This document shows, in pieces, positions 6,784 through 6,839 of a stretch of 64,000 nucleotides of DNA. A model generated the notes under the pieces. It worked only from the letters and a program-made list of their open reading frames with translations, made no database searches and was not told the DNA's origin. The stretch lies in assembly GCF_003352065.1 (NCBI RefSeq), contig NZ_CP025803.1:1839574-1903573 (forward strand), given 5' to 3'. Source of the DNA: Sulfitobacter sp. SK011. Lineage in GTDB: Bacteria > Pseudomonadota > Alphaproteobacteria > Rhodobacterales > Rhodobacteraceae. The position numbers were made by a program, and so were the translations under genes. Numbering within the stretch: the stretch's first letter is position 1; each line of letters starts with the position of its first letter.

Positions 6784-6801
6784 CGCCGCAGTTCGTGCGG
6801 C
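6784..6801 (+). other. Short stem-loop after the LytTR gene
   Basis: GCCGCA at 6785-6790 and TGCGGC at 6796-6801 can form a six-base-pair stem with a five-base loop just after the stop codon. No T-run follows, so it is at best a weak terminator. It overlaps the first of the three 9-bp repeats described next. Confidence 0.35.
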
Positions 6802-6839
6802 CTAAGATGCATTTCGTGCAAAAATCAGATCATTTCGTT
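6789..6839 (+). promoter_or_regulatory. Triple 9-bp direct repeat, putative LytTR operator of cox operon
   Basis: Three near-identical nonamers lie in the gap between the LytTR gene and coxM: CAGTTCGTG (6789-6797), CATTTCGTG (6810-6818) and CATTTCGTT (6831-6839). Each pair is separated by exactly 12 bp, giving a 21-bp repeat. LytTR domains characteristically bind 9-bp direct repeats with 12-13 bp spacers, so this is the expected operator for the MHYT-LytTR protein encoded just upstream. I cannot assign the promoter hexamers with certainty. Confidence 0.6.

What the first reader, a model, noticed from the sequence alone, without database searches (positions are those of the whole stretch)
6789..6839. 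Three 9-bp repeats with exact 21-bp phasing between a MHYT-LytTR gene and coxM
CAGTTCGTG, CATTTCGTG and CATTTCGTT are spaced by exactly 12 bp twice, so all three face the same side of the helix. LytTR domains bind 9-bp direct repeats with 12-13 bp spacers, and a LytTR protein with a gas-sensor-type membrane domain is encoded six bases to the left. This gives a concrete hypothesis for CO-responsive control of CODH in Roseobacters. The first copy overlaps a small stem-loop, which could be partly coincidence.
Basis: partly seen in the sequence, partly recalled or inferred. Interest (0 to 1): 0.72.

Follow-up and report, generated by a model that had tools for sequence, protein, structure and literature searches.

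The report
Conserved CO-sensor operator before coxM
The three short repeats are almost certainly the DNA docking site through which a membrane-bound carbon-monoxide sensor (CoxC) controls the CO-oxidising enzyme genes next to it, and the same site stands before these genes in many related bacteria.

Summary
The left gene is a MHYT-LytTR protein, the only LytTR match in the genome; the right genes are coxMSL. A precedent is published: Afipia CoxC, a CO-sensing MHYT-LytTR repressor that binds three direct repeats (PMC11347149). New here is the comparative evidence. A strict two-copy pattern occurs at 68 places in 394 family genomes; 64 lie 87-135 bp (median 99) before coxM. In 34 of 34 held-out loci with coxM behind coxC, the best copy pair of the locus is in the coxC-coxM gap, 0.71 expected. 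Where coxC has moved away, the pair stays with coxM. So the repeats are a CoxC/RcoM-type operator of the coxM promoter. Side results: the published Afipia repeats are probably mis-registered; Afipia has two further candidate operators; in two rhizobial species a MHYT-LytTR gene with its triplet precedes an EAL-type gene instead of cox. Whether CoxC represses or activates coxM is open. New member of a known kind.

The parts
5662..6783 (+). [quoted passage not shown] ORF open from TTG 5644)
   Evidence: Pfam MHYT 1.3e-32 and LytTR 2.4e-16; only LytTR match in the genome; Afipia CoxC has the same two domains
6788..6799 (+). operator copy 1 (GCAGTTCGTGCG; nonamer 6789-6797)
   Evidence: read directly; matrix score 17.2; conserved copy 1 in the family alignment
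6809..6820 (+). operator copy 2 (GCATTTCGTGCA; nonamer 6810-6818), the most conserved copy
   Evidence: score 21.3, the matrix maximum; near-invariant columns in 53 aligned gaps
6830..6841 (+). operator copy 3 (TCATTTCGTTGA; nonamer 6831-6839), weaker
   Evidence: 21 bp after copy 2; TT core conserved in relatives
6870..6875 (+). candidate -10 box TACAAT of PcoxM (inferred, weak)
   Evidence: relatives hold a CATGCA-like element near this distance (offset 58 from copy 2 in 20 of 57; log-likelihood 68.6 against a maximum of 39.6 in 20 shuffles); the window's TACAAT is at offset 61
6905..6910 (+). GGGAGG ribosome-binding site of coxM
   Evidence: sequence; purine-rich conserved columns in relatives
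6918..7772 (+). coxM, CO dehydrogenase flavoprotein subunit
   Evidence: Pfam FAD_binding_5 and CO_deh_flav_C
7785..10702 (+). coxS (7785-8279) and coxL (8276-10702)
   Evidence: Pfam Fer2_2 and MoCoBD domains
10754..14190 (+). accessory genes downstream in the same direction: coxD-like AAA ATPase, coxE-like VWA protein, XdhC/CoxI-family protein, MobA-like protein
   Evidence: Pfam

Best explanation
The three repeats are the operator of the coxM promoter for the membrane-bound one-component regulator CoxC (MHYT-LytTR) encoded just upstream. Three LytTR domains would bind side by side on one face of the DNA, about 21 bp apart (inferred). The MHYT domain senses CO in the membrane (shown for Afipia CoxC, inferred here), which changes binding and so transcription of coxMSL and the accessory genes. 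coxC lies outside the unit that this operator would control, unlike in Afipia, where coxC lies behind PcoxB. The sign of control is inferred: relief of repression by CO, as reported for Afipia CoxC in E. coli, is somewhat more likely than activation. The confidence given covers either sign.
For: Exact 21-bp triplet. The genome's only LytTR match is next door. Published precedent with binding, mutation and CO data (PMC11347149). The RcoM consensus TTCNNGC, taken from that paper and not fitted here, forms pairs at 20 or 21 bp in 26 cases over 91 gaps against 0.19 in 200 shuffles (maximum 2); each of 15 other spacings occurs once. A repeat scan that assumes no motif has its highest means at spacings 21 and 20 (14.66, 14.02; next 13.37 at spacing 10; shuffled 12.39 +/- 0.19 at 21). 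A strict pair pattern lies before coxM at 64 of 68 places, 87-135 bp from the coxM match. Held-out loci: 34 of 34 with coxM behind coxC have their best pair in the gap, 0.71 expected. In three genomes with coxC about 4, 14 and 30 kb from coxM, and one with the two on different contigs, the pair is before coxM. H, N and R of LytTR, which I recall as base contacts from AgrA, are conserved in 89, 91 and 92 of 92 sequences.
Against: No binding or expression data for this species. Copy 3 is weak. The third MHYT motif reads V-H-F here, V for M in 75 of 92 sequences, so copper/CO sensing may differ from Afipia. Afipia CoxC shares only 28% identity with the window protein. One coxM genome without a CoxC match (G109) keeps a weak pair about 121 bp upstream. 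In two held-out loci (L128, L145) the gap pair is weak (10.2, 13.4). The matrix was trained on the family's own gaps, so only searches are free of that circle.
Confidence: 0.86

Rival explanations
1. Same operator and regulator, other sign: CoxC is a CO-dependent activator at PcoxM, as RcoM is, not a repressor. Copy 3 abuts the -35 region and replaces a missing -35 box.
For: With the candidate -10 at 6870-6875, copies 1-3 are centred near -87, -66 and -45, and no TTGACA-like box lies 17 bp upstream of that -10 (inference). RcoM, with the same consensus and spacing, is described as an activator (PMC11347149).
Against: CoxC of Afipia repressed PcoxB and CO relieved this in E. coli (PMC11347149); the -10 is only predicted.
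Confidence: 0.35
2. The repeats belong to the 3' end of coxC (terminator, stem-loop or RNA element).
For: In the window copy 1 starts five bases after the stop and folds; in many relatives copy 1 lies inside the 3' end of coxC.
Against: Where coxC is detached the pair stays with coxM; distance to coxM is tight; the stem is not conserved; no T run follows.
Confidence: 0.02
3. Another regulator, not CoxC, binds the repeats.
For: One genome without a CoxC match keeps a weak pair (G109).
Against: No second LytTR match in this genome; two coxM genomes without a CoxC match (G008, 82% complete, and G083) show no pair within 400 bp before coxM; the motif fits the published RcoM consensus.
Confidence: 0.06
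4. Chance repeats.
For: Copy 3 is imperfect.
Against: Conservation and position tests.
Confidence: 0.01

Closest known systems
CoxC / PcoxB of Afipia carboxidovorans OM5 (Durante-Rodriguez et al. 2024, PMC11347149)
   Same: MHYT-LytTR regulator beside cox genes; three direct repeats needed for binding; CO as effector
   Different: Here the operator lies between coxC and coxM. The published Afipia repeats, read from the mutant primers, are at 12201, 12230 and 12256 of L108 (29 and 26 bp start to start); the family motif finds a 21/20-bp triplet at 12185, 12206 and 12226 in the same fragment. The third MHYT motif differs
RcoM (heme-PAS-LytTR) of Paraburkholderia
   Same: Triplet of TTCNNGCA repeats with 12-13 bp between copies (PMC11347149); the matrix trained on CoxC gaps gives as its best pair in a Caballeronia cox locus two copies of a 21/21 triplet between a PAS-LytTR-like ORF and coxM
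   Different: Soluble heme-PAS sensor, not a membrane MHYT sensor; no second LytTR protein in this genome
Classical LytTR sites (AgrA type)
   Same: 9-bp direct repeats 10-13 bp apart (PMC11347149)
   Different: A pair of repeats, not three; other sensors

Membership tests
CoxC-type MHYT-LytTR regulator with its operator | N-terminal MHYT domain fused to C-terminal LytTR domain | tested here: met
   Pfam
CoxC-type MHYT-LytTR regulator with its operator | three intact MHYT motifs | tested here: inconclusive
   motifs 1 and 2 are M-H-F and M-H-Y, the third reads V-H-F; Afipia reads M-H-F, M-H-Y, M-H-Y
CoxC-type MHYT-LytTR regulator with its operator | three direct repeats before a cox gene | tested here: met
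CoxC-type MHYT-LytTR regulator with its operator | LytTR domain binds the repeats; CO with copper releases it | not testable with these tools
   needs gel shift and reporter assays
RcoM system | TTCNNGCA triplet at 20-21 bp | tested here: met
   copy 2 exact, copy 1 TTCGTGCG, copy 3 only TTCGTTGA; spacing test
RcoM system | heme-binding PAS sensor fused to LytTR | tested here: not met
   the genome's single LytTR protein carries MHYT
intrinsic terminator or 3' element of coxC | conserved hairpin travelling with coxC | tested here: not met

The most novel reading that the evidence does not exclude
One LytTR operator code (GCANTTCGTGCA-like triplets about two turns apart) serves two unrelated CO sensors, heme-PAS (RcoM) and copper-MHYT (CoxC), so DNA address and sensor evolved as exchangeable modules. 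The code has also been recruited beyond cox: in Sinorhizobium meliloti and Rhizobium leguminosarum a MHYT-LytTR gene and its triplet stand before an EAL-type gene, which would make c-di-GMP turnover respond to a diatomic gas.
Probability: 0.45. Interest if true: 0.68.

Novelty: new member of a known kind. Interest (0 to 1): 0.5.

Why it matters
Marine Rhodobacteraceae are counted among the important CO oxidisers (recalled). None of the papers listed by searches shows, in title or opening of the abstract, a study of how they switch CODH on; only those listings were seen, and many papers are not in the library. The operator gives a defined DNA target in this group. It also suggests re-registering the repeats of the published CoxC operator and predicts two more operators in that model organism.

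Tried and rejected
Stem-loop as a functional element: rejected. Other operators in the own genome: no other place has fewer than three mismatches. Operator before coxC itself: the best single copy in 5205-5662 scores 9.3 and the next 2.7. Promoter modelling: a CATGCA-like element lies near the expected -10, but its offsets scatter, so the promoter stays tentative. Solved structures: one irrelevant hit (E 0.0086); no model was made. coxM genomes without a CoxC match as a negative control: 5 of 100, found by comparing the lists by eye (G008, G083, G102, G109, G354); two have no pair within 400 bp before coxM, one has a weak pair, two are cut by contig ends.

Results against or weakening the pattern: in the family the best 12-mer matches the consensus at only 7-9 of 12 positions in L094, L095, L097 and L049, although L095 and L049 still show two copies 20 bp apart. 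In the triplet scan the best triplet carried the label GAP in 51 of 57 loci; the six others are L108, L117, L128, L130, L145 and L203. The 51 include L116 and L110, which have no coxM behind coxC, and L113 with a score of only -8.4; many of the 57 are Rhodobacterales like the training set. Four of 68 pattern places are not before coxM, and the reversed control pattern also gave scattered hits, which I did not total. In Paraburkholderia aromaticivorans the two gap pairs rank only third and fourth. In the rhizobial EAL loci the third copy is 19 bp, not 21 bp, after the second.

Rows dropped: of the hits, those down to about E 1e-24 plus G017 were used; weaker, mostly MHYT-only hits were left out. 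Of 97 loci (L002-L098) two lacked a C-terminal match and four had no coxM within 3 kb, leaving 91 gaps. One search used the 53 of 91 with copy 2 at 103-111 bp before coxM; one search used 57 for the -10 search. For one search I chose 39 loci outside the trained family; loci labelled Rhodobacterales, L148, L194 and partial or MHYT-only matches were left out. Five of the 39 have no coxM behind coxC. L133/L199 and L111/L127 look like near-duplicates. One search was given only the coxM places of genomes that carry the pattern.

Full report
WHAT IS THERE. Between a gene that stops at 6783 and coxM at 6918 stand three nonamers at exactly 21-bp steps. The left gene has MHYT and LytTR domains and is the only LytTR match in the 4.19 Mb genome. 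The right genes are coxM, coxS, coxL, a MoxR-type ATPase, a CoxE-type VWA protein, an XdhC/CoxI-family protein and a MobA-like protein. The nearest named relative among the plasmid records searched is a cox cluster of Pseudosulfitobacter pseudonitzschiae (CoxC 89.3% identical) with the same 21/21 triplet.

WHAT IS KNOWN. Of PMC11347149 I read the abstract, the first part of the discussion, two method sections and passages, not the figures. It reports that Afipia CoxC, a MHYT-LytTR protein, represses PcoxB, that CO relieves this and copper is required, and that binding needs three direct repeats. It gives the RcoM site as three TTCNNGCA repeats with 12-13 bp between them. The window's copies read TTCGTGCG, TTCGTGCA and TTCGTTGA.

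CONSERVATION IN THE FAMILY. CoxC was sought in 394 family genomes from 393 genera; 111 had a match, MHYT-only proteins included. From 97 fetched loci 91 coxC-coxM gaps were cut. A repeat scan that assumes no motif has its highest means at spacings 21 and 20. The RcoM consensus TTCNNGC, not fitted here, is in 75 of 91 gaps (the last 45 bases of coxC included; 200 shuffles: mean 32.9, maximum 44), and pairs at 20 or 21 bp number 26 against 0.19 (maximum 2). Aligned on copy 2, 53 gaps show CGCANTTCGTGC, then GCATTTCGTGCA, then a weaker TTTCATTGA. In many gaps copy 1 lies inside the end of coxC.

GENOME-WIDE SPECIFICITY. The pattern GCANYTSGTGN{10,11}GCANYTSGTG occurs at 68 places in 66 of 394 genomes. 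Of these, 64 (in 64 genomes) lie upstream of coxM on the same strand, 87-135 bp away, median 99 (with coxM places). So 64 of 100 genomes with a coxM match have it there; of 294 without, two (G341, G382) have it anywhere. The pattern is strict, so a miss is not an absence.

OUTSIDE THE FAMILY. A matrix from the family's copies was run on 39 loci from other groups (Hyphomicrobiales, Kiloniellaceae, Telmatospirillum, Nisaea, two Granulosicoccus-type loci, unnamed class members and five named plasmid loci with cox). In all 34 with coxM behind coxC the best pair of the locus, both strands, lies in the gap; 0.71 expected by length. MHYT-LytTR genes without a cox gene in the stretch held (L117, L130, L203) have no such pair (best 4.4, -0.5, 0.3).

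NATURAL EXPERIMENT. In G328 (14 kb), G279 (about 30 kb) and G007 (about 4 kb) coxC stands apart from coxM, and in G296 on another contig. In all four the pair is before coxM. No pair scoring above 12 was printed behind coxC, though for G296 only about 155 bases behind coxC are held. So the repeats are a promoter element of coxM, not part of coxC.

THE MODEL ORGANISM. A scan of 29 kb of Afipia pHCG3 that did not use the published site gives three pairs well above the rest: coxC-coxM gap (15225, score 22.1), before coxB (12185, 20.6) and behind coxH (24437, 20.3); the next scores 7.0. Names coxB, coxH and coxI are assigned from gene order. The coxB site lies inside the published fragment, except that its first base precedes the primer. 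The published mutant primers place its repeats at 12201, 12230 and 12256 (29 and 26 bp apart), the family motif at 12185, 12206 and 12226 (21 and 20). The published first mutation changes 12201, 12202 and the G at 12206, the first G of the second family copy, a position that is G in 53 of 53 family copies 2; that could explain its effect. This re-registration is my inference. The passages found for coxM, coxH, coxI and 'operators' mention no further operator.

SHARED CODE WITH RCOM. In Caballeronia sp. SBC1 the best pair of an 18.9 kb cox locus belongs to a 21/21 triplet (8703-8756) between an ORF read from 8634 down to 7909 and coxM at 9001. That ORF has a LytTR match (6.3e-12, but only to position 59 of 98, so it may be broken) and PAS matches below Pfam's cut-off; calling it rcoM-like is my reading. 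In Paraburkholderia aromaticivorans, whose LytTR gene stands beside cox, two pairs lie in the corresponding gaps but rank only third and fourth in the locus. So the shared code is suggested, not proved.

BEYOND COX. In S. meliloti (L110, L243) and R. leguminosarum (L244) a MHYT-LytTR gene is followed by a triplet (steps 21 and 19 bp; best pair 31.4, 29.8 and 25.6 against at most 10.4 elsewhere) and then an EAL-type gene, with no coxM match behind it in L110 and none annotated in L243 and L244. Pfam calls EAL clearly for one ORF version (5.9e-11) and just below its cut-off for the shorter annotated ones (29.5 and 30 bits against 31.3). The two EAL-type proteins are 72% identical over 131 residues. 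The L110 protein has both MHYT and LytTR domains.

MECHANISM. Shown here: position, phasing, conservation, linkage to coxM, single LytTR protein. Reported elsewhere for a relative: binding, CO release, copper. Inferred: that CoxC binds here, that CO is the signal, and the sign of control. The promoter position is only predicted. The third MHYT motif has V for M in 75 of 92 sequences, so sensing details may differ.

Noticed in passing
L110 4953-6155 and 6353-6964; L243 5989-7203 and 7501-7995; L244 about 5951-7190 and 7480-8046: In Sinorhizobium meliloti and Rhizobium leguminosarum plasmids a MHYT-LytTR gene plus a CoxC-type triplet (21/19 bp) precedes an EAL-type gene, with no cox gene behind it.
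   Followed up: partly
L108 15225-15276 and 24437-24490: Two further candidate CoxC/CoxH operators in Afipia carboxidovorans pHCG3, in the coxC-coxM gap and behind coxH, besides the published one before coxB.
   Followed up: partly
L108 23221-23613 and 23579-24421: The second MHYT gene of Afipia (coxH by position) is annotated as two overlapping CDS, so it may be broken or mis-annotated in this record.
   Followed up: no
L242 2568-9001: In Roseivivax sp. THAF197b a Tn3-family transposase gene and other genes lie between coxC with its operator and coxM; the coxM match begins only at residue 35 and no gene is annotated there.
   Followed up: no
L116 3540-3586, minus strand: An Afipia MAG has a triplet (20/21 bp) upstream of coxC but on the opposite strand; the ORFs read from that strand are a 226-aa protein without Pfam match and a chemotaxis receptor-like protein, so the target may be other than cox.
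   Followed up: partly
L235 4107 (G109): A coxM without a CoxC match in its genome keeps one good and one degenerate copy about 121 bp upstream, perhaps the remains of an operator.
   Followed up: partly
L238 7909-8634: The PAS-LytTR-like ORF beside a Caballeronia cox cluster matches LytTR only to profile position 59 of 98; it may be broken.
   Followed up: no
window 5662-6783: Third MHYT motif reads V-H-F instead of M-H-Y/F; V in 75 of 92 aligned relatives.
   Followed up: partly
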